From the NCBI RefSeq assembly GCF_947495275.1, contig NZ_CANLYL010000001.1, forward strand, positions 124,001 to 188,000: DNA of 64,000 nt, read 5' to 3'. Made by a program: the position numbers and the translations under genes. Positions 44,765-54,722 of this stretch are shown piece by piece. The stretch's first letter is position 1, and each line of letters begins with the position of its first letter. The stretch is from an uncultured Roseobacter sp. Lineage in GTDB: Bacteria > Pseudomonadota > Alphaproteobacteria > Rhodobacterales > Rhodobacteraceae. The notes beneath the pieces were generated by a model. It did no database searches, was not told the origin of the DNA, and saw only the letters and a program-made list of their open reading frames with translations.

Positions 44765-44840
44765 GCCCCTATAGCTCAGCTGGTAGAGCAACTGATTTGT
44801 AATCAGTAGGTCCGCGGTTCGAGTCCGTGTGGGGGCACCA
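44765..44840 (+). tRNA. tRNA-Thr (anticodon TGT)
   Basis: A full 76-nt cloverleaf: acceptor GCCCCTA pairs with TGGGGGC (one G-T pair), the D arm contains AGCTCAGCTGGTAGAGC, the anticodon stem-loop is CTGATTTGTAATCAG with anticodon TGT, the T arm is CGCGGTTCGAGTCCGTG, and CCA is encoded. It reads ACA codons. The 3' end of this tRNA is the likely integration site of the island, since an integrase gene follows at 44932. Confidence 0.95.
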
Positions 44841-44931
44841 TTTCTCTCTAAGAAACCCTTTATTTCCTTGATTATATCGCGTTCGGCTGTCTATCACGAC
44901 ACACACGGCGACACACATCGAGGACACAAAG

Positions 44932-46256
44932 ATGGCCCTAAGCACCAAAATCAAACATGTGGATAAGCGGCCAAACGGGGTTTTGAGGTTTAGAAGACGG
45001 TTTCCGAAAGATGTTGCTGAGATGCTTGGCGAGCCAGCCTTGCAGGTTCACATCAAAAATCGCGACGGCCTCGCTTTTCATCGAGAATATCAGGCCATCA
45101 TGCAAGAGTTCGACCGGATGGTGTCCGAGGTCCGCAGCCGTATCGATGGCAATGACACGAGATTACCAATCGAAAGATGGTATGAAGCACTGCTTAAGCG
45201 CGAAAAGCTGGCGTCTGAGACCATTGGCCTCGAAGAAGACCCAGAGTTTGCCGCTAGGGAGATTGCCAAGGGCCTCTCGGAGCAGCCTAATACTGACCCG
45301 CTGTTGTTGAAGGCCTTGGTGAACCCGGACGCCGATGCTCCTGAACTGTCACTGCAGGACGCCAAGATGATGTATGCTCGGGACAAGCGGTTTCCTGATA
45401 ATGAGATTGTCCGTCTTGACCGGATTACACGCCGTCTTGAGGAAGCCCTAGGACCGCTCGATGAGGTGACCCTCGAGGGGCTGCGACGAGATCACGGCAG
45501 GCGCTACATGGACCTGATGCTCAAGACTACTAAGTCAGATGGTCAGCCGCTGTCTGTCGCTACATGCTCTAAGGAGAGCAAAATCATCGCTGCTATGGTC
45601 AACCATGCCATGCGTGAAGGTGACATCGACACAAAGAACCCGTTCATCGGCCTTCCGTGGCCCAAAGACACTGGCCCGAAGGTGAACAAGAAGCTGCCAT
45701 TGCCAGACGGTTTGATTGAGAATGTGGAAGAGCGGCTCAAGGAAGGTCGAACCAAGGAGCTTCCAGTGATGTGGCGATTGTTGAAAGGGACAGGTATGCG
45801 GCTCGGTGAAATTGCTGGTCTTTGTTACGAAGACATCGTCCTTGATGCAGAGACACCTCATATTCTTGTTCGCCCCAATGCAATTCGCGACCATAAGACA
45901 GCCTCAAGCAACCGCTCTGTTCCCCTTGCTGGAGGCACCTTGACAGCCGCTGAGGAAGCCCTTGAGGGTGTTGGCTCAGGAGAACCTGCTTCGCTCGATA
46001 CGCTCGAGATAGGGGCGCTGACGCGGCCTCTGCGGCTTTGATGAAAGCCGTTCGTGCGGAGACCAAAGACAAGCGGCTTACTGTGCACGGCCTGAGACAC
46101 CGAGTATCTGACAAACTAAGAGACGCAGGTGCACCTGTGGAGGTTCGCCACGGTTTTCTCGGGCATTCATCCTCCGCAATAGCGGAGACAACTTACGGTT
46201 CACCGCGGGCAAGACTGAACGAGTATCTTAGGTGGGCGGTAAAATCGAAACTATGA
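44932..46256 (+). pseudogene. Phage-type tyrosine integrase, split by a frameshift
   Basis: An intact gene would encode about 440 residues. The first frame (44932-46041) holds the N-terminal DNA-binding domains and the first catalytic Arg in 'GTGMRLGEIAGL' (near 289). After about residue 350 the frame ends in unrelated sequence. From about 45992 another frame continues the protein ('RYARDRGADAASAALMK') and carries 'VHGLRH' (His-x-x-Arg), 'GFLGHSS' and the nucleophile Tyr in 'TTYG'. A single-base indel at about 45985-45995 thus separates the two halves. It could be a real inactivating mutation or a sequencing error. It lies 92 nt after tRNA-Thr. Confidence 0.85.
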
Positions 46257-46435: not shown

Positions 46436-47797
46436 ATGAAAACAAAAATTACGCGCGTTTTGCAAGTTGGAGATATCCATCTCCCAGAATGGCCTTCTAA
46501 GACTACAGATATTGACATAAAAGATGGAAATTTTTCGAAAGAAATCATTGGCGAACTGACACAAGACCGTTTGTCTCAGGTTCTCAAGGCACTTAACAAG
46601 GTGGCAAATTCCGGCTCTGTGGATGCTGTAGCATTGATGGGAGATTACACTTCGCGCGGTGATATAAAGTTCATTCGACCCGCTGTTCAAATTATGCGTG
46701 CGATACTGCGAGATGATAGCAACGAACGGCAACCGTTAGTATTCGGCGTGCCAGGAAACCACGATGTCGCTAAAGAAACCGCAGCCATAGGTGGACCAAT
46801 TGTCAAGTTTGACCCGATACAACAAGCTTTCAAAGAATTTGGCTTCCTCGAACTACCCGTTGAGGACTGCATTGTTCACCAAATCTCAGCCGAGCATGAC
46901 GTAAGACTGCCTGTTTATCTTCTCAACTCAAGCATTGGGTCTATGTCCATGCACCTGCTCCCAAAACCATTAAGTGATGAATTCACTGACGATAAGCTTG
47001 GTCAAGAGGCGATAGAACTGGTTGGGAAAGAACCTGTGGTAGCGGCCGAGCCTGCTTTTGGACATCCTTATAGCCAATCTTCGAACCGCCTGCATCAGTT
47101 GTATAAACAACTAGACACCCCCTACTTTTCGAAGACTGCTTTAGATACCTTACTAGATCAATTGGATAAAGAGCAAAGCTCATTTGCTTTCTTGTGCGCG
47201 CATCACAACCTTTTACCACAAAGAGTTCCGAGAATTTCACCATATTCGGAGATGCTCAACGCTGGACTGGTTAGAAGCCATCTTCTGGGCAGTGGCAAGA
47301 ATATCGTGTATTTACACGGACACATTCACGAAGGCCCAGTTGAGCAAGTTGTTAGGACGACCGAGCATGGGACCGAAAGACCAAATCGCCAACTTTTGTG
47401 CATCTCGGCCCCGCCGATATGGGAGGGTTTTAATGAAGTCGCATTCTTTCACCAAGAAGATGGAGAGGTTTTCTTAGTGCGGTTAATTGAATACCGCCCT
47501 GACGAAAATGGCAGAATTGGAAATTATTCAGATCAACGTGCAACATTCTTTCCGCTAATCGCCGACAACCGAACGCTGCTTACACGTAACGCAAGGAAAC
47601 TGTGGGATAGATTGCGGGACAGCAAACGACTGAACTGGCGTGAAGCTGTGGATGAGTGCGGCTCATTGCACATAAATGAAGATGAGCTAGAACACCTCCT
47701 GTTGCTATTGTTTTGTGCCGGGGTTGTTGAACTTGTCAATCTTGGAAAGCCGCGCGCGAAATGGCGTATAGTCGCGATGGAGGGTTTGGGCGGATGA
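46436..47797 (+). CDS. Calcineurin-like metallophosphoesterase, first gene of an island cassette
   Basis: A 453-residue two-metal phosphoesterase. The five family signatures are present: 'DIH' (near 13), 'GDYTS' (near 69), 'GNHD' (near 107), 'AHHN' (near 254) and 'GHIH' (near 294). The C-terminal ~120 residues are extra, and look like a helical or winged-helix domain ('LTRNARKLWDRLRDSKRLN'). It could cleave nucleic acid, a cyclic nucleotide or another phosphodiester. The gene is AT-rich compared with flanking chromosome. Its stop overlaps the start of the ATPase gene by 4 nt (ATGA). Candidate effector or nuclease of a conflict system. Confidence 0.85.
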   Translation: MKTKITRVLQVGDIHLPEWPSKTTDIDIKDGNFSKEIIGELTQDRLSQVLKALNKVANSGSVDAVALMGDYTSRGDIKFIRPAVQIMRAILRDDSNERQPLVFGVPGNHDVAKETAAIGGPIVKFDPIQQAFKEFGFLELPVEDCIVHQISAEHDVRLPVYLLNSSIGSMSMHLLPKPLSDEFTDDKLGQEAIELVGKEPVVAAEPAFGHPYSQSSNRLHQLYKQLDTPYFSKTALDTLLDQLDKEQSSFAFLCAHHNLLPQRVPRISPYSEMLNAGLVRSHLLGSGKNIVYLHGHIHEGPVEQVVRTTEHGTERPNRQLLCISAPPIWEGFNEVAFFHQEDGEVFLVRLIEYRPDENGRIGNYSDQRATFFPLIADNRTLLTRNARKLWDRLRDSKRLNWREAVDECGSLHINEDELEHLLLLLFCAGVVELVNLGKPRAKWRIVAMEGLGG

Positions 47798-49821
47798 TGA
47801 ACCCCTTCCAACCAACAAAGTCTGAATTTGAAAAAAAGCCGCGAGTTTGGCTTTCGTCATGGGCAAAGGGCTTAATCAGAAATAAGAAAGCTGACTTCGT
47901 TGTAGGCACCCGCGGCAGCGGGAAAACGACCGTGCTGCGCTCACTTCATTCAAAACTTCTCTTTGAAAATGAATTGCTTGCCGAACAGTTTCCGGCTCGA
48001 AGGTTTCACTGGTTCGGCTGCTACATGCAATTCAATCACAGCTTCCAGCATTTAACAGAAGATATTCAAAAACAGGTCTCAAGCGGAGCTAATCGAGAAC
48101 CAACCGACCTAGAACGATACAAACTTTTCTGTGCATTTTTTGAGCTGAGCTTATTGGAAAGCGTTCTTGAAGACCTCAAGTCACTTGAAGACAATGAAAC
48201 TCTTCATTTTTCAGCTAAAAAGGAGTTTGAGGCTTGCCAAGAGATTAGTGAAGTCTTCGCGAACCTTGGATTAAAGCACGTTAGGAAAATTGCAGACTAT
48301 AGTGATGCACTGCGGTTGGTTCGCACTCTTCGATCATCTTTTTTGGCCATCTACGACAATGAAAAACTTTCAGAAGCCAGAATGGTTATTGATGCGTTCA
48401 CACCAGCTACACTCATCAAGCTGATAAGTAACAAGATTGTCCCGTCCGTAATGCACTCGAGGCTAAAAAAGTCATCAGAGCTTGATCTGTTTATACTGCT
48501 GGACGACTGTGAAAACCTGAGTTCTTTGCAGCAAAAAGCGCTAAACACATACCTCCGATCAACCGAAGGTCAAGCGAAGTGGGTCGTCGCTTATATCAGA
48601 GGAGAATACAATACAGTCGAAACGACCATTCCTGAAACTTCCCTCAGTCATGCAGATCGAAAATTCTGCAATGTCGATGAACTAAAAGAAGATGATTTCA
48701 AAAAATTCTGTGAGAGCGTGGCCGATCTGCGAATTCGTGGTCTTGTCACGACAAACACAAAGAAAGTTACTTCCGACAACCAATTGTTCTCACTTGACAA
48801 AAAGTGTGGGGACCCTTCTTACAATTCATTGATGGAAGAAGTCTTGGGTGGGCAATACCGGAGTGCTGCAGTTACAAAGTTTCGTTCTGACGTTGGGCGC
48901 ACTAAAGAGCTGTTGGACAGGACACTGTCACCAGACCAAAAAAGTTCCTTTCATGTAGTTTCGGGTCGTTCGCCATTTACCGAACATGTTGTAATTGACA
49001 GTCTTGGTTTGGACGTAACCAAATATCCTACGAAAGATGACCAAGTAAGGCTTCGAAAAGAAATTTATCGCAAAGAGGCCATTGCTTACATAGTTGCTTG
49101 CTTACAATGCAACCGACCTCCTATTTATGCGGGTCAGCGGTTCATAATATGGGCTAGCGACGGCAACATACGCGACTTCCTCGATATCATGGCGGAATTT
49201 TTTGATGCACAAAACCCTACAAGCCGAGTAGAGAGCGAGAGCGGTCAAACACTGGCAAGAGCTTGCCGAAAGTTTTTGAACAACTCACAGCGATTTTCTT
49301 TTAAGCTTCAAGATCAAGCCTTGAAGGCCGTGTCTGGGCATTCGTTTGAGACGATTGAAGAGATGCAAGATACTGGTGATGCCCATCAATACTATCTGCT
49401 GTCGGGTGTTGCAGAGCTGCTCAAGTTGTTACACCAGTATAATGAAAATGGAGAAGCTGTAAGATACCCTGATCGTGGTGTTTTCGTTGTTAATGCAGCT
49501 CAATTCGCCGCTTTGGCTAGGACATTGCCATTCTTCGATATCACATCTTTGCTGCGCCGGATCGAACGGGATGGTTTTGTTAGAATTCTTGATGGACACA
49601 GCTCAATTGGAAAAGACGACATCGCGTTCAGGCTCCATCGCCGCCTCTCCGCTCATCTACAGTGTTCTCCAAGAGGTGCATACGAAAATACTCGAATAGA
49701 CCCTAAGGCGCTCGTTCGGCTGATGGCTCAAGTAGCACCATTGTCTCCGTCTGATTGGGCCAAAGAGTATTTTGATGGATTTATTGCCGTAGACAAACGT
49801 CAGGGGCGTTTTGAGATTTGA
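47794..49821 (+). CDS. ORC/Cdc6-like AAA ATPase, second gene of the cassette
   Basis: A 675-residue P-loop ATPase. Walker A 'GTRGSGKTT' lies near 38-46 and Walker B 'LDLFILLDDCENLS' near 231-240. The N-terminal pattern (a 'NPFQPTKSEFE' lead, then a P-loop with the GxRGSGKT form, then 'WFGCYMQFNHSF') resembles bacterial ORC-CDC6 family ATPases. Its C-terminal half has no domain I recognise but ends in a winged-helix-like section. The start at 47794 (ATGATG, GGAGGG upstream) is preferred over 47761. Such ATPases often act as sensors or regulators in anti-phage loci. It is coupled to both neighbours. Confidence 0.85.
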   Translation: MMNPFQPTKSEFEKKPRVWLSSWAKGLIRNKKADFVVGTRGSGKTTVLRSLHSKLLFENELLAEQFPARRFHWFGCYMQFNHSFQHLTEDIQKQVSSGANREPTDLERYKLFCAFFELSLLESVLEDLKSLEDNETLHFSAKKEFEACQEISEVFANLGLKHVRKIADYSDALRLVRTLRSSFLAIYDNEKLSEARMVIDAFTPATLIKLISNKIVPSVMHSRLKKSSELDLFILLDDCENLSSLQQKALNTYLRSTEGQAKWVVAYIRGEYNTVETTIPETSLSHADRKFCNVDELKEDDFKKFCESVADLRIRGLVTTNTKKVTSDNQLFSLDKKCGDPSYNSLMEEVLGGQYRSAAVTKFRSDVGRTKELLDRTLSPDQKSSFHVVSGRSPFTEHVVIDSLGLDVTKYPTKDDQVRLRKEIYRKEAIAYIVACLQCNRPPIYAGQRFIIWASDGNIRDFLDIMAEFFDAQNPTSRVESESGQTLARACRKFLNNSQRFSFKLQDQALKAVSGHSFETIEEMQDTGDAHQYYLLSGVAELLKLLHQYNENGEAVRYPDRGVFVVNAAQFAALARTLPFFDITSLLRRIERDGFVRILDGHSSIGKDDIAFRLHRRLSAHLQCSPRGAYENTRIDPKALVRLMAQVAPLSPSDWAKEYFDGFIAVDKRQGRFEI

Positions 49822-49823
49822 AC

Positions 49824-50828
49824 ATGATATTTGATGGATACTCCTTTGAGGAAACTTCTTGCGACTTGACTTCAATTCCCAGGGCCGCCGTTGACCAAGC
49901 CATCTTCACAATTGGTTGGGAAGACCGAGCTGAAGCCTTGCTTAAGTCTGGGGCCATCACTGGCGAGCACGCCTATTGCGTCCGATTTGACGGGGATGGT
50001 GTAGAAAACAGCAAGGTGAGCAGCTTTATTGCCGAGGCCAAAAAGAACTTCCAAAAAGTCGATCTGATAACACTCGGCAGCGCTTTGGATAAATTGTCAT
50101 GGGAAGGCAGTCTAGAAAAGTTTGTGACCGGAACGATGGCTGAGGCTCCCGGCTATTCTGTGTTTATCGACTATACTTGTATGCCTAAAGCGATCACACA
50201 AACGCTTTATCGTATGCTGCTAAAGCGCACGAACTACCCCAAAACATTTTGGGGCTACTGCGAAGGAAAATACGAAGCAAGCATTGGTAATGTTCAGTTC
50301 GACCAAGGCTTGAGCGGTAAGTTCTTTCCAATACGTTTCACTCCCGGAAAAGGGGGAACTTCAAACGAACGCGCTCTGATCTTGGCGTTGGGAGGCGACC
50401 CAAAACTAATTTTCACGTTGCTCGAACAGGCTGATCGCGACCATATTTACGTTTTAACAGCAAGTGCTCCATCTTCCGCCGAACTATTTCACACCGCACA
50501 TGACCAGAAGTCTCGATTAATGAGGGAATTTCACGTTCCACAGGGCAATTTCGTAGAAGCCAACGCGGCTTCTGTTAACAACTGTTTGGGAAAGTATTTA
50601 TCGATTGTGAGAGCGCTTCCAAAGGCTTGCGCAATTGAAATCTTCTGTTCTGGGCCAAAATCACATGCGGTCGCAGCTTGTGCAATCGCGGAAAAATTTA
50701 GCGATACTGTTTCGCTACTCGGAAGAACACCGCTTGAATACTCGAGGCACAATGTCCCTGCGTCTGGACCTGTCTCAATCAGCACAGTGACAAATTTCTG
50801 CAATCCAGATGTAAGACAAATTTTATAA
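49824..50828 (+). CDS. Unrecognised two-part protein, third gene of the cassette
   Basis: A 334-residue protein with no family I can name. The ATG at 49824 lies 2 nt after the ATPase stop; a TTG at 49818 overlapping that stop (with AGGGG 11 nt upstream) would add two residues. Two Rossmann-like halves can be guessed: one with 'FIDYTCMPKAITQTLY' (an Asp-x-Thr...Lys pattern), the other with 'EIFCSGPKSHAVAA'. Both recall nucleotide-binding CARF/SAVED-like sensors or SIR2-like folds, but this is only a resemblance. It has no TM segment. It likely acts with the phosphoesterase and the ATPase because the three frames are coupled. Confidence 0.75.
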   Translation: MIFDGYSFEETSCDLTSIPRAAVDQAIFTIGWEDRAEALLKSGAITGEHAYCVRFDGDGVENSKVSSFIAEAKKNFQKVDLITLGSALDKLSWEGSLEKFVTGTMAEAPGYSVFIDYTCMPKAITQTLYRMLLKRTNYPKTFWGYCEGKYEASIGNVQFDQGLSGKFFPIRFTPGKGGTSNERALILALGGDPKLIFTLLEQADRDHIYVLTASAPSSAELFHTAHDQKSRLMREFHVPQGNFVEANAASVNNCLGKYLSIVRALPKACAIEIFCSGPKSHAVAACAIAEKFSDTVSLLGRTPLEYSRHNVPASGPVSISTVTNFCNPDVRQIL

Positions 50829-51181: not shown

Positions 51182-51820
51182 ATGTCCAGAACAATTCTTT
51201 ATACCCGCGTTTCCACTGCCGAACAGACCAGCGAACATCAACTTGAGCAGGCCCGCAAAGCAGGATTTCAGATAGATAAGGTGGTGACCGATCACGGCAC
51301 TTCGGGCGTTACCACCAAGCTGGCAGAGCGCGAAGGCGGCAAGCGGCTCTTCGATATGCTACGCGAAGGGGACACGTTAGTGGTTCGTTGGGTGGACCGT
51401 CTAGGGCGCAACTATCAGGACGTGACTGACACCATTCGGGAGTTCATCCGCAGAGGCGTGACAATCAAGACCGTGATCAACGGCATGGTCTTCGACGGCA
51501 CGACCACAGACCCCACTCAGAAGGCCATCAGGGACGCGCTCATTGGCTTTATGGCGGCGATGGCGGAAGCACAGGCAGAGGCCAACAAAGAGGCTCAGAG
51601 GGCCGGTATTGCGCACCATAGGGCCGCCTCTCCGGACAAGTTCAAAGGGCGTAAGCCAAACTTCGATAGGGCCAGCTTTGAAGCTGTGCAAGCGATGCTG
51701 AATGCAGGGCAAGGTCACTCAGCGATTGCTAAGGCCACAGGCGTCAACCGGAACGCCGTGATCAGGATTGCCCAAGACCCTTCGAAGGCAGAAGCTGCAC
51801 TGGAGAAGTGGGGGTTGTGA
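51182..51820 (+). CDS. Serine recombinase (resolvase/invertase family)
   Basis: Site-specific recombinase of 212 residues. The N-terminal catalytic domain has the nucleophile Ser in 'YTRVSTAEQ' and the conserved Arg region 'VVRWVDRLGRNYQD'. A C-terminal helix-turn-helix (about 165-205, 'GHSAIAKATGVNRNAVIRIA') binds DNA. It resolves cointegrates or inverts a segment. The upstream repeats at 51060-51177 are its probable site. Its codon use is GC-richer than the cassette before it, so it may come from a plasmid backbone along with the mob genes. Confidence 0.9.
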   Translation: MSRTILYTRVSTAEQTSEHQLEQARKAGFQIDKVVTDHGTSGVTTKLAEREGGKRLFDMLREGDTLVVRWVDRLGRNYQDVTDTIREFIRRGVTIKTVINGMVFDGTTTDPTQKAIRDALIGFMAAMAEAQAEANKEAQRAGIAHHRAASPDKFKGRKPNFDRASFEAVQAMLNAGQGHSAIAKATGVNRNAVIRIAQDPSKAEAALEKWGL

Positions 51821-53028: not shown

Positions 53029-54285
53029 CTACCGCTCAAAAATCGGCCTGTCTCGTGTCCTGTCCGATGACTTGCCGCGCACGTCCCTGAATTTCTCACG
53101 ATCCATCGCAAGAGCCTGTGCCTGCTCTTTGATGGCATCCATCTCGTGCCGTTGTTGTCGTCCCAGATTTTTACGCTCATCCAAATGCTGAAAGACAAGC
53201 TGATCAGTTTGTTCGTGATCCCGTAGGTGAGCAGTCCAGGCCTGCGCTTCATTCTCTTTTTTGATCTTCGAATGCTCGCCGCGCAGACGATCCCATAGAC
53301 CTTTGAGCCCAACACGAAAGCGCTCTTGTCTCTGTTTGACTTCAGCGATCTGGCGTTGCTCCAGCCTCTCTTTCAAACGCTGGCGCTCCGCACGTTGCCG
53401 CTCAATCAGCTTTCCGCGTTCTTGGTCTTGGCGTTGTTTTAGCTTCTGTTTTCTGGCCTTGAGCTCGGTCTGCGATTGATCGAGTGCAGGCTGCATTGAC
53501 TTGGCGATATGGGCTTTGGTCTCTCCGACAGATCGAAGCTCTTTGGGAATACCCAGCTTTTCTTTCACCTGCCTGGTGCGCTGGCCCGTCCATTTCGCAA
53601 CGGCATAGACTTCCCCATGAACATCCAACGCGACAAAACCGCGTCGATCACCTTTTGCTAGAAAAAAGCCCTTCTCCTCCAGTGCAGCAGCAAATGCGGC
53701 GCGGTTGTCTGAGACCTGCCATGCTTCCTGAAAGACCATTTTGATCTGCCGGGCGTCTTTGCCGATGCGTTTGGCCTGCTGCCACTCCGAGAGGCTGAAG
53801 TTTCTTGGATCGCGGTTCTGTTTATCCCTAAATCCGTCCGGTAGCCGCCAGCCATGCTCTAGAAACAGCTCTTTGGATAGACCTTTGAGCCGCTGTTTGT
53901 AGAAGGGAAGACAAACGGCTTTCATCTCCATTGCATCAATGCGGGACCAGACGACATGGGCGTGTCGCCGCCCGTTCTTTTCATGAAAAACAATTGCTCG
54001 TGCCTGATCATTCAGCCCGAGCTGCTGTTCTGCACGCTCAACGGCATCCAGAATATCAGCCGTTGAAACCCGTTCTGTCTCTGGCGGATTGATACTGAGT
54101 GAGAACAGATATTGCTGGCACTTGGTCCCTTTGGAGATGGCATCGGCTTCCTGGAATGCGCCGTGCAATGTCTCTGCCGTGAAGCCCCGCAGCTCGTGAA
54201 CCTCCACATGATCGTTGTCACGGGAGTTCATCAAATGCGCCGCCAGTTTCAGGCCACCGCTGCGTTGGCTGCCTTTGAGGATCAT
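53029..54285 (-). CDS. Relaxase/mobilization nuclease (MobA/VirD2 type)
   Basis: A 418-residue plasmid or island transfer protein. The relaxase domain (about 1-250) contains the metal-binding histidine motif 'FHEKNGRRHAHVVW' near 100-113. A long charged coiled coil (about 265-345, rich in Gln, Arg and Glu) follows. Relaxases nick oriT, but no Tyr occurs in the first 50 residues, where classical motif I would be, so an unusual catalytic residue is possible. It overlaps mobC by 4 nt. The C-terminus ends 12 nt beyond an IS fragment, so it may be truncated. Confidence 0.85.
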   Translation of the reverse strand: MILKGSQRSGGLKLAAHLMNSRDNDHVEVHELRGFTAETLHGAFQEADAISKGTKCQQYLFSLSINPPETERVSTADILDAVERAEQQLGLNDQARAIVFHEKNGRRHAHVVWSRIDAMEMKAVCLPFYKQRLKGLSKELFLEHGWRLPDGFRDKQNRDPRNFSLSEWQQAKRIGKDARQIKMVFQEAWQVSDNRAAFAAALEEKGFFLAKGDRRGFVALDVHGEVYAVAKWTGQRTRQVKEKLGIPKELRSVGETKAHIAKSMQPALDQSQTELKARKQKLKQRQDQERGKLIERQRAERQRLKERLEQRQIAEVKQRQERFRVGLKGLWDRLRGEHSKIKKENEAQAWTAHLRDHEQTDQLVFQHLDERKNLGRQQRHEMDAIKEQAQALAMDREKFRDVRGKSSDRTRDRPIFER

Positions 54286-54722
54286 TCACGTTCCTCTGGT
54301 TTGTAACCCAGGGCTGTCATCAGCTCCGAACGGATCGCAAGAATGGCAGCGCATGTTGTCATCAGTTCTTCTTCGACTTCGGGCGATACAGCAAGCGTTC
54401 CCAAATTCACGGCCTTGGCGAGTTGGTTGAGGTTGCTGGCCAAACGGAGATTGCCGAGCAGGCCGAGTGCCCGCGCCAGCGCGGCGTGATCTTTGACGGG
54501 AGCCCGTCCGCGAGTGCGACGTGGTTTGCATTCACCATCAAACACCTTGTTTTTGATGAACGATCCAAGCGGCATACCAGCCGCATCACGCTCCAGCCTC
54601 TGCCGTTCCTCCTTGCTCAAGCGCAGCGAGAATGGTGGGAGTTTCTTGCGGGCTTTCCGCTTCGAGGTCGTCGCGGAATTTGCAACTTTTGTATCAGTGA
54701 ATGTTTGCGAGAGATGGTTCAT
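54282..54722 (-). CDS. mobC: Relaxosome accessory protein (MobC type)
   Basis: A 146-residue DNA-binding helper for the relaxase. A basic N-terminus and ribbon-helix-helix segment ('FSLRLSKEERQRLERDA') precede 'GNLRLASNLNQLAKAVNLGTL', the MobC signature. It should bind oriT and help melt the nick site. It lies between a small gene and the relaxase gene, each joined by ATGA overlaps, forming one mobilization operon. Confidence 0.85.
   Translation of the reverse strand: MNHLSQTFTDTKVANSATTSKRKARKKLPPFSLRLSKEERQRLERDAAGMPLGSFIKNKVFDGECKPRRTRGRAPVKDHAALARALGLLGNLRLASNLNQLAKAVNLGTLAVSPEVEEELMTTCAAILAIRSELMTALGYKPEERE

What the first reader, a model, noticed from the sequence alone, without database searches (positions are those of the whole stretch)
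46436..50828. Candidate undescribed three-gene defence-type cassette (metallophosphoesterase, ORC-like ATPase, unknown protein)
Three same-strand genes are joined by a 4-nt overlap and a 2-nt gap, are clearly AT-richer than the flanking chromosome, and sit in a mobile island right after an integrase. A predicted phosphodiesterase/nuclease plus a sensor-type ATPase plus a possible ligand-binding protein is the layout expected of an anti-phage or anti-plasmid system. I cannot match the trio to a named system.
Basis: partly seen in the sequence, partly recalled or inferred. Interest (0 to 1): 0.85.

Follow-up and report, generated by a model that had tools for sequence, protein, structure and literature searches.

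The report
Phosphoesterase, ATPase and CARF defence operon
A three-gene operon in a mobile island of a bacterium looks like a phage-defence alarm (a sensor of a family known from CRISPR signalling, an ATPase switch and a swappable enzyme that probably attacks nucleotides or nucleic acid); it is an untested member of a class whose parts are already catalogued.

Summary
In detail: three abutting same-strand genes (46436-47797, 47794-49821, 49824-50828), AT-rich, in an island at a tRNA-Thr. The "unknown" third protein is a stand-alone tandem-CARF protein (PADLOC CARF6, E 2.5e-23; its model's best structural matches are Csm6, Can2, Card1 and, over both lobes, SAVED). The second is Pfam ORC-CDC6-like (5e-61); the first is a metallophosphoesterase with its metal motifs intact. 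In 56 of 61 genome loci found through the first gene, the other two follow in order (four exceptions end at contig ends), with identities down to 12-22%. ORC-CARF is a module with exchangeable enzymes: phosphoesterase, HD-CE, PRTase-CE or kinase. 38 of 42 carrier genomes searched have neither RAMPs nor SMODS nucleotidyltransferases. All 13 members of a sister clade have a D12 adenine methyltransferase nearby; none was found for the 38 rows of the window's clade. A congener has a different cassette in the same slot. Most likely a CARF-gated ATPase switches on a nucleotide- or nucleic-acid-cleaving effector; defence is inferred, not tested. "Undescribed" is only partly right: the parts are catalogued, and the class was probably predicted in 2023 (recalled; paper not held).

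The parts
44765..44840 (+). tRNA-Thr (TGT), integration site; left end of the island
   Evidence: ARAGORN; alignment with congeners L154-L157 ends at 44840-44844
44932..46253 (+). tyrosine integrase gene, interrupted: open to 46041, last part in another frame
   Evidence: Pfam Phage_integrase 5.4e-4 on the open part, under Pfam's cut-off; an intact 456-aa relative in a congener aligns in two frames
46436..47797 (+). metallophosphoesterase (MPE), 453 aa, predicted effector
   Evidence: Pfam PF00149 1.4e-10; NCBIfam DS9_1 2.4e-10 but 39.9 bits against a cut-off of 420; metal-motif residues kept in 40 or 41 of 41 aligned rows (one row has a gap at the first motif)
47794..49821 (+). ORC-CDC6-like AAA+ ATPase, 675 aa, predicted switch (ORF listing gives an upstream ATG at 47761; relatives support 47794)
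49824..50828 (+). CARF6-type tandem CARF protein, 334 aa, predicted ligand sensor (alternative TTG start 49818)
51182..51820 (+). serine resolvase of the element
   Evidence: Pfam Resolvase 3.7e-28; 94% identical protein beyond the other cargo in congener L158
53029..54285 (-). relaxase-like protein (named by eye, no family call)
   Evidence: open frame; 40% identical stretch in L015, about 7 kb upstream of its trio
54282..54722 (-). MobC-like accessory protein (named by eye, no family call)
   Evidence: open frame; 41% identical stretch in L015

Best explanation
A mobile, probably anti-phage operon. Shown: one conserved three-gene unit; a stand-alone tandem-CARF protein; an ORC/CDC6-like AAA+ ATPase with intact Walker motifs; a calcineurin-like phosphoesterase with intact metal motifs; ORC-CARF as a constant module whose enzyme is exchanged. 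Inferred: the CARF protein binds a nucleotide-type signal made or released during infection, binding is passed to the ATPase, which assembles or changes shape on ATP, and this turns on the phosphoesterase. The enzyme then hydrolyses nucleotides (my first choice) or nucleic acid and stops replication of the invader, perhaps with the cell. The signal probably does not come from a type III CRISPR complex or a SMODS nucleotidyltransferase, since 38 of 42 carriers searched show neither RAMPs nor SMODS over cut-off.
For: Unit: the other two genes follow the MPE in order in 56 of 61 genome loci and all three are present in 8 of the 10 plasmid regions read, with identities down to 12% (CARF), 18% (ATPase) and 22% (MPE). 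Sensor: PDLC01919 matches 39 of 43 third proteins; fold matches to Csm6, Can2, Card1, Csa3 and SAVED; conserved residues (W32, R35, D116, P121 in 38-42 of 43; G190, G277, K279 in 43 of 43) sit just after beta-1 and beta-4 of the two lobes, where CARF ligands bind (recalled). Exchange: 13 distinct genomes had PF24389 in two surveys; of the 12 neighbourhoods read, CARF is adjacent or fused in 11, and the enzyme is MPE in 2, HD-CE in 2, PRTase-CE in 5, a fused kinase in 2, none in 1; G029 is a further HD-CE case. Precedent: DS-8, an MPE-NACHT protein, loses phage protection when either activity is mutated (PMC13092281, passages). Slot: a different cassette lies between a related integrase and resolvase in congener G944. 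Signal: RAMPs in 1 of 42 genomes, SMODS over cut-off in 3 of 42 (5 of 42 at E 0.001). DNA methyltransferase neighbours fit an anti-DNA role.
Against: No experiment. No ligand, substrate or phage is known. Pfam gives the window's third protein no hit, and PDB sequence searches found no CARF relative; Foldseek's three best E-values are for other proteins and CARF/SAVED rows start at 1.3e-3. The free-nucleotide substrate rests on analogy with the exchanged enzymes and on recalled literature. RAMPs are only a proxy for type III; the Cas10 palm model also fires on E. coli, so it tells nothing, and other signal synthases were not searched. The MPE profile also matches SbcD/Mre11 nucleases (about 3e-4). 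One PF24389 genome of 12 read has no CARF (G868). By annotation, only three of the eight complete plasmid regions show plain defence or toxin genes nearby.
Confidence: 0.55

Rival explanations
1. Restriction-like system: the ORC-type AAA+ ring loads on or scans DNA, the MPE is an Mre11/SbcD-like nuclease, CARF tunes it, and DNA methylation marks self. In the window's clade the methylation would come from the host or another gene.
For: All 13 clade-I rows have a D12 adenine MTase close by: 12 on the same strand (L058 upstream, L068 with one gene between) and L074 on the opposite strand. C5 MTase matches lie within 4 kb of the 3 HD-CE variants read (L097 weaker and at the edge of the stretch) and beside the fused-kinase locus L100. 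ORC, MuB and TnsC, among the structural matches, bind DNA (binding recalled and in entry titles). Profile match to SbcD/Mre11 about 3e-4.
Against: No D12 gene was found for the 38 clade-II rows, the window among them; the D12 link is probably one evolutionary event. No C5 or D12 match near the 5 PRTase-CE loci. A kinase and a PRTase stand in the MPE's place in relatives and are not nucleases. Lmo2642 (1.3e-8) scores better than SbcD.
Confidence: 0.22
2. The MPE is an off-switch that degrades the CARF ligand (a ring-nuclease analogue), and the ATPase-CARF complex is the effector.
For: Calcineurin-type phosphodiesterases that cleave cyclic nucleotides are listed among signalling domains of conflict systems (PMC7159879, passages).
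Against: HD-CE, PRTase-CE or a kinase stands in its place in relatives, and these would hardly all degrade one ligand. In DS-8 and DS-9 the MPE activity is needed for protection, which an off-switch would not predict.
Confidence: 0.1
3. Not defence: a regulator or plasmid/island maintenance module carried by mobile elements.
For: Only mobile and patchy carriage is shown directly (a match to the ATPase in 3 of 149 family genomes, own included; CARF profile in 1 of 385 class genomes, the own). Five of the eight complete plasmid regions show no plain defence gene by annotation.
Against: Three plasmid copies sit near AbiE and restriction, VapC, or anti-phage dGTPase and restriction genes, and the same slot holds an MTase-ATPase cassette in G944 (by eye).
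Confidence: 0.1

Closest known systems
CARF6 family (PADLOC-DB models; I recall Makarova et al. 2020, NAR gkaa635, as the source; not held)
   Same: Third protein matches PDLC01919 at 2.5e-23, as do 39 of 43 relatives.
   Different: A protein family, not a system; the same scan gave only weak hits for the ATPase and phosphoesterase.
Kinase-AAA+-CARF proteins (Makarova et al. 2014, PMC4012209, passages)
   Same: AAA+ with an arginine in the P-loop plus CARF; the window family has this Arg (R40) in 43 of 43. L081 matches PADLOC CARF_STK_AAA at 5e-70 and L100 has kinase, ATPase and CARF matches in one protein.
   Different: Separate genes and a phosphoesterase instead of a kinase. By eye the PRTase-CE variant L082 lacks the Arg.
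Nucleotide-targeting effector systems with Calcineurin-CE, HD-CE, PRTase-CE (Nicastro et al. 2023, NAR gkad879; reference seen, content recalled, paper not held)
   Same: HD-CE and PRTase-CE (PF24391, PF24390, accessions next to ORC-CDC6-like PF24389) stand before ORC-CARF in relatives.
   Different: Whether the MPE-ORC-CARF6 trio or its methyltransferase form is described there could not be checked.
DS-8 and DS-9 (DefensePredictor, Science 2026, PMC13092281, passages)
   Same: Phosphoesterase coupled to a signal NTPase (DS-8); the MPE matches the DS9_1 model at 2.4e-10.
   Different: One protein with NACHT, or MPE plus HAD phosphatase; no CARF in the passages seen. DS9_1 score 39.9 against a cut-off of 420.
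Type III CRISPR and CBASS
   Same: CARF/SAVED-type sensor fold.
   Different: No Cas10/RAMP or CD-NTase in the trio; RAMPs in 1 and SMODS over cut-off in 3 of 42 carriers.

Membership tests
CARF superfamily, CARF6 | significant match to CARF6 profiles | tested here: met
   PDLC01919 2.5e-23 for the window; 39 of 43 relatives at 1e-3
CARF superfamily, CARF6 | CARF Rossmann-like fold | tested here: met
CARF superfamily, CARF6 | binds a cyclic oligonucleotide or other nucleotide | not testable with these tools
   conserved residues at the expected loops only
ORC-CDC6-like (PF24389) | score over Pfam's cut-off, with Walker A and B residues | tested here: met
   207.4 bits against 27; K44, T45, D237 in 43 of 43
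Type III CRISPR ancillary system | RAMP-containing complex in the genome | tested here: not met
   no RAMP match in the window's genome; 1 of 42 carrier genomes
CBASS | CD-NTase in the operon | tested here: not met
   none among the trio; no SMODS match in the window's genome, 3 of 42 carriers over cut-off
DS-8 type (MPE-NACHT) | MPE and NTPase in one protein | tested here: not met
   separate genes
SbcCD/Mre11-Rad50 | SMC/ABC-type ATPase partner | tested here: not met
   the partner is ORC-CDC6-like AAA+
Calcineurin-CE systems (2023) | match to the authors' Calcineurin-CE domain | not testable with these tools
   paper not held; Pfam scan of the MPE gave PF00149 only
BREX | PglZ and PglX beside the AAA+ ATPase | tested here: not met

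The most novel reading that the evidence does not exclude
ORC-CARF is the core of a family of methylation-licensed immune switches: an adenine methyltransferase (clade I) or cytosine methyltransferase (HD-CE forms) marks self, the ORC-type ring checks DNA, the tandem CARF reports a signal that comes from no known cyclase, and one of four exchangeable enzymes executes. The window's clade lacks the methyltransferase gene, perhaps relying on host adenine methylation.
Probability: 0.18. Interest if true: 0.78.

Novelty: new member of a known kind. Interest (0 to 1): 0.52.

Why it matters
It is a CARF-type sensor without an identified signal source. If the module is defensive, there is probably a second way of feeding CARF proteins, and identifying its ligand becomes a direct experiment. 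The exchange of four enzymes on one ORC-CARF core offers a clean test of what the core senses, and the consistent methyltransferase neighbour in the sister clade points to self/non-self marking in a CARF system.

Tried and rejected
Cas10 palm model PF22335 as a test for type III CRISPR: matches in 22 of 42 genomes but also in E. coli among the controls, so dropped; RAMPs used instead. First genome scan with the third protein alone found no relative; the alignment of the first protein did. Plasmid megablast and phage tblastn: no match. PDB sequence searches for the third protein: no useful hit. The class-wide search with the CARF profile found only the window's own genome among 385, so carriage is rare and my unit counts come from loci selected through the MPE. 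An attR copy of the tRNA end: none with up to 2 mismatches in 17 nt, so the right border of the island is not fixed. Considered and dropped: CBASS, type III ancillary, SbcCD, BREX, RADAR (no deaminase in the trio's Pfam scan; RdrA is only a structural match). Host CcrM as substitute for the clade-I methyltransferase: an idea only, not tested. Rows dropped: A4 and A5 use 42 loci of L014-L075 plus the window, after near-copies and incomplete loci were left out by hand; A6 left out two partial MPEs (L047, L060). The neighbour scan used 40 of those loci, up to four genes each, none over 900 aa (142 genes), and 118 of 156 control genes; L128 was left out because its contig carries a trio, and stretches under 3000 bases were left out. 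Control stretches are starts of contig 1, several very short, so the control is rough, and only the 25 commonest of 83 and 120 families are listed. The CARF and ORC profiles include L080, L081 (CARF only) and L082 themselves, so matches there are by construction; PADLOC found CARF6 in those three independently.

Full report
Observation. The first two overlap by ATGA, and two bases separate the second from an ATG at 49824. The trio's GC is 0.458 against 0.565 for the window. A tRNA-Thr lies at 44765-44840. Alignment with four congeners (L154-L157) stops at window 44840-44844, its 3' end. The integrase next to it is interrupted: an intact relative from a congener aligns to it in two frames.

Families. 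Protein 1 is a calcineurin-like metallophosphoesterase (PF00149, 1.4e-10). Its metal-motif residues (D13, H15, G69, D70, G107-N-H-D110, H256, H294, G295, H296) are kept in 40 or 41 of 41 aligned rows; one row has a gap at the first motif. Protein 2 is ORC-CDC6-like (PF24389, 5.4e-61) with an arginine inside Walker A (43 of 43), the feature by which a kinase-AAA+-CARF family was described in 2014 (PMC4012209, passages). Protein 3 has no Pfam match but matches PADLOC's CARF6 models (best 2.5e-23); 39 of 43 relatives match the same model.

Conservation of the unit. A scan of genome contigs with the phosphoesterase alignment gave 61 loci; the phosphoesterase is present in them by selection. In 56 of 61 the ATPase and CARF genes follow in the same order and strand. 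Of the five others, four end at contig ends and L055 has a shortened ATPase and no CARF match. Among the 56, L037 and L038 have a split first gene, L038 also a split CARF, and L047 and L060 start inside the first gene. Among ten plasmid regions read, eight hold the trio and the two Sphingobium ones are decayed; about 35 plasmid records matched in all. One viral contig has it too (L075). Many Mesorhizobium loci are near-copies; 42 loci were kept for alignments. Outside the four closest rows (L014-L017) identity to the window is 12-28% (CARF), 18-29% (ATPase) and 22-35% (phosphoesterase). Record titles name Pseudomonadota, Actinomycetota, Verrucomicrobiota, Planctomycetota, Bacillota and MAGs of other phyla. 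L014, the closest (63-69%), is labelled an Anaerolineae MAG, which I suspect is mis-binned but did not test. Carriage is rare: a match to the ATPase in 3 of 149 family genomes, PF24389 in 3 of 289 class genomes and 11 of 398 phylum genomes, the own genome counted each time.

A module with exchangeable enzymes. Thirteen distinct genomes had PF24389 in the two surveys; neighbourhoods of 12 were read (G676, at the same contig coordinates as G816, was not fetched). CARF follows or is fused in 11 of 12. The enzyme is a phosphoesterase in two (G000, G816), HD-CE in two (G610, G897), PRTase-CE in five (G280, G604, G732, G914, G591) and a protein kinase fused to the ATPase in two (G282, G828); G868 has an ATPase with a weak match and no CARF. 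G029, found with the window's protein, is another HD-CE case. The constant part is therefore ATPase plus CARF, and the first gene behaves as the output.

A fourth gene. Of 142 neighbour genes around 40 trio loci, 10 match D12 adenine methyltransferase and 4 ThyX; neither is among the 25 families listed for 118 control genes. Searched directly, same-strand D12 genes lie near 12 trios (L058 upstream, L068 with one gene between) and an opposite-strand one beside L074, with none in 39 control stretches (380 kb). In a tree of 51 ATPases these 13 lie on one side of a branch with 100/99 support. So 13 of 13 in that clade, and none found for the 38 rows of the other, to which the window belongs; some of those loci have little flanking DNA (L060 ends just after CARF). 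This is probably one gain or loss, and long branches make details unsure. ThyX matches lie after CARF in five loci of one subclade (L008 in pieces, L046 some 0.7 kb away) and in L058. C5 methyltransferase matches lie within 4 kb of the three HD-CE loci (L097 weaker, at the edge) and of L100; none near the five PRTase-CE loci, and one weak match in the controls.

No known signal source. RAMP genes occur in 1 of 42 carrier genomes and SMODS nucleotidyltransferases over cut-off in 3 of 42 (5 at E 0.001), none in the window's genome; the four genomes are different, so 38 of 42 have neither. The Cas10 palm model is uninformative. Other synthases were not searched, and several genomes are MAGs or drafts.

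Setting. In congener G944 the same tRNA-Thr site has a 69% identical integrase, then a different cassette (by eye: DNA methyltransferase, HerA-like ATPase, a 443-aa protein), then a resolvase 94% identical to the window's. This is one slot with exchanged cargo. At E 1e-8 no other locus searched shares the integrase, and only L015 has the relaxase, so the trio travels on different elements. Of the eight complete plasmid regions, three lie near AbiE and restriction genes (L009), VapC (L011) or an anti-phage dGTPase and restriction gene (L013); the annotations of the other five show no plain defence gene, though L008 has ThiF and Mov34 genes.

Mechanism. I favour a CARF-gated AAA+ switch that turns on the phosphoesterase. 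Shown: families, motifs, predicted fold of the CARF protein, constant module and exchanged enzyme. Inferred: ligand, activation, substrate, outcome. The nearest tested system is DS-8, a phosphoesterase-NACHT protein in which both activities are needed for protection (PMC13092281, passages); phosphoesterases are predicted as nucleotide-cleaving effectors in other conflict systems (PMC7159879, passages). Cleavage of free nucleotides is my first choice because HD and PRTase enzymes stand in the same place; DNA cleavage with methylation as self mark is the main rival and fits clade I better than the window's clade. An off-switch role is less likely.

Known or new. The parts are catalogued and the class was probably predicted in 2023; I could not read that paper or the 2020 CARF paper. 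Ten literature searches listed no paper that I recognised as describing the trio; they cover only open-licence texts, and I saw listings and passages, no whole paper. I therefore file it as a new member of a known kind for which I found no experimental test. The methyltransferase link may be new, but it concerns relatives rather than the window itself.

Noticed in passing
L056, L057, L058, L059, L061, L062, L066, L068, L070, L072, L073, L075 and L074, near CARF or MPE: D12 adenine DNA methyltransferase near every clade-I trio (13 of 13); none found for the 38 clade-II rows.
   Followed up: partly
L009:10462-11400, L052, L064, L046, L008 and L058: ThyX thymidylate synthase gene after CARF (L008 in pieces, L046 some 0.7 kb away).
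   Followed up: partly
L158:3678-8002 (congener, same tRNA-Thr): Another defence-like cassette (methyltransferase, HerA-like ATPase, 443-aa protein; named by eye) in the same slot.
   Followed up: partly
L082:5262-12404, L098, L099, L101: PRTase-CE variants: a SIS/HAD-type protein beside the core in L082, L098 and L101 (HAD part by Pfam, SIS by eye) and a PfkB-like kinase in L082 (Pfam) and L099 (by eye).
   Followed up: partly
L100:5494-9210: Kinase, ORC-CDC6-like ATPase and CARF matches in one 1239-aa protein.
   Followed up: no
L075 (IMG/VR contig): A contig of the viral collection carries the trio and a D12 methyltransferase; its ATPase is close to that of a Massilia locus (L062) in the tree. 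Phage-borne or a mis-called contig.
   Followed up: no
L014: Closest relative (63-69%) is labelled an Anaerolineae MAG; mis-binning suspected.
   Followed up: no
L068:8092-10431: Protein with a DndB match (1.3e-9) between CARF and the D12 methyltransferase.
   Followed up: no
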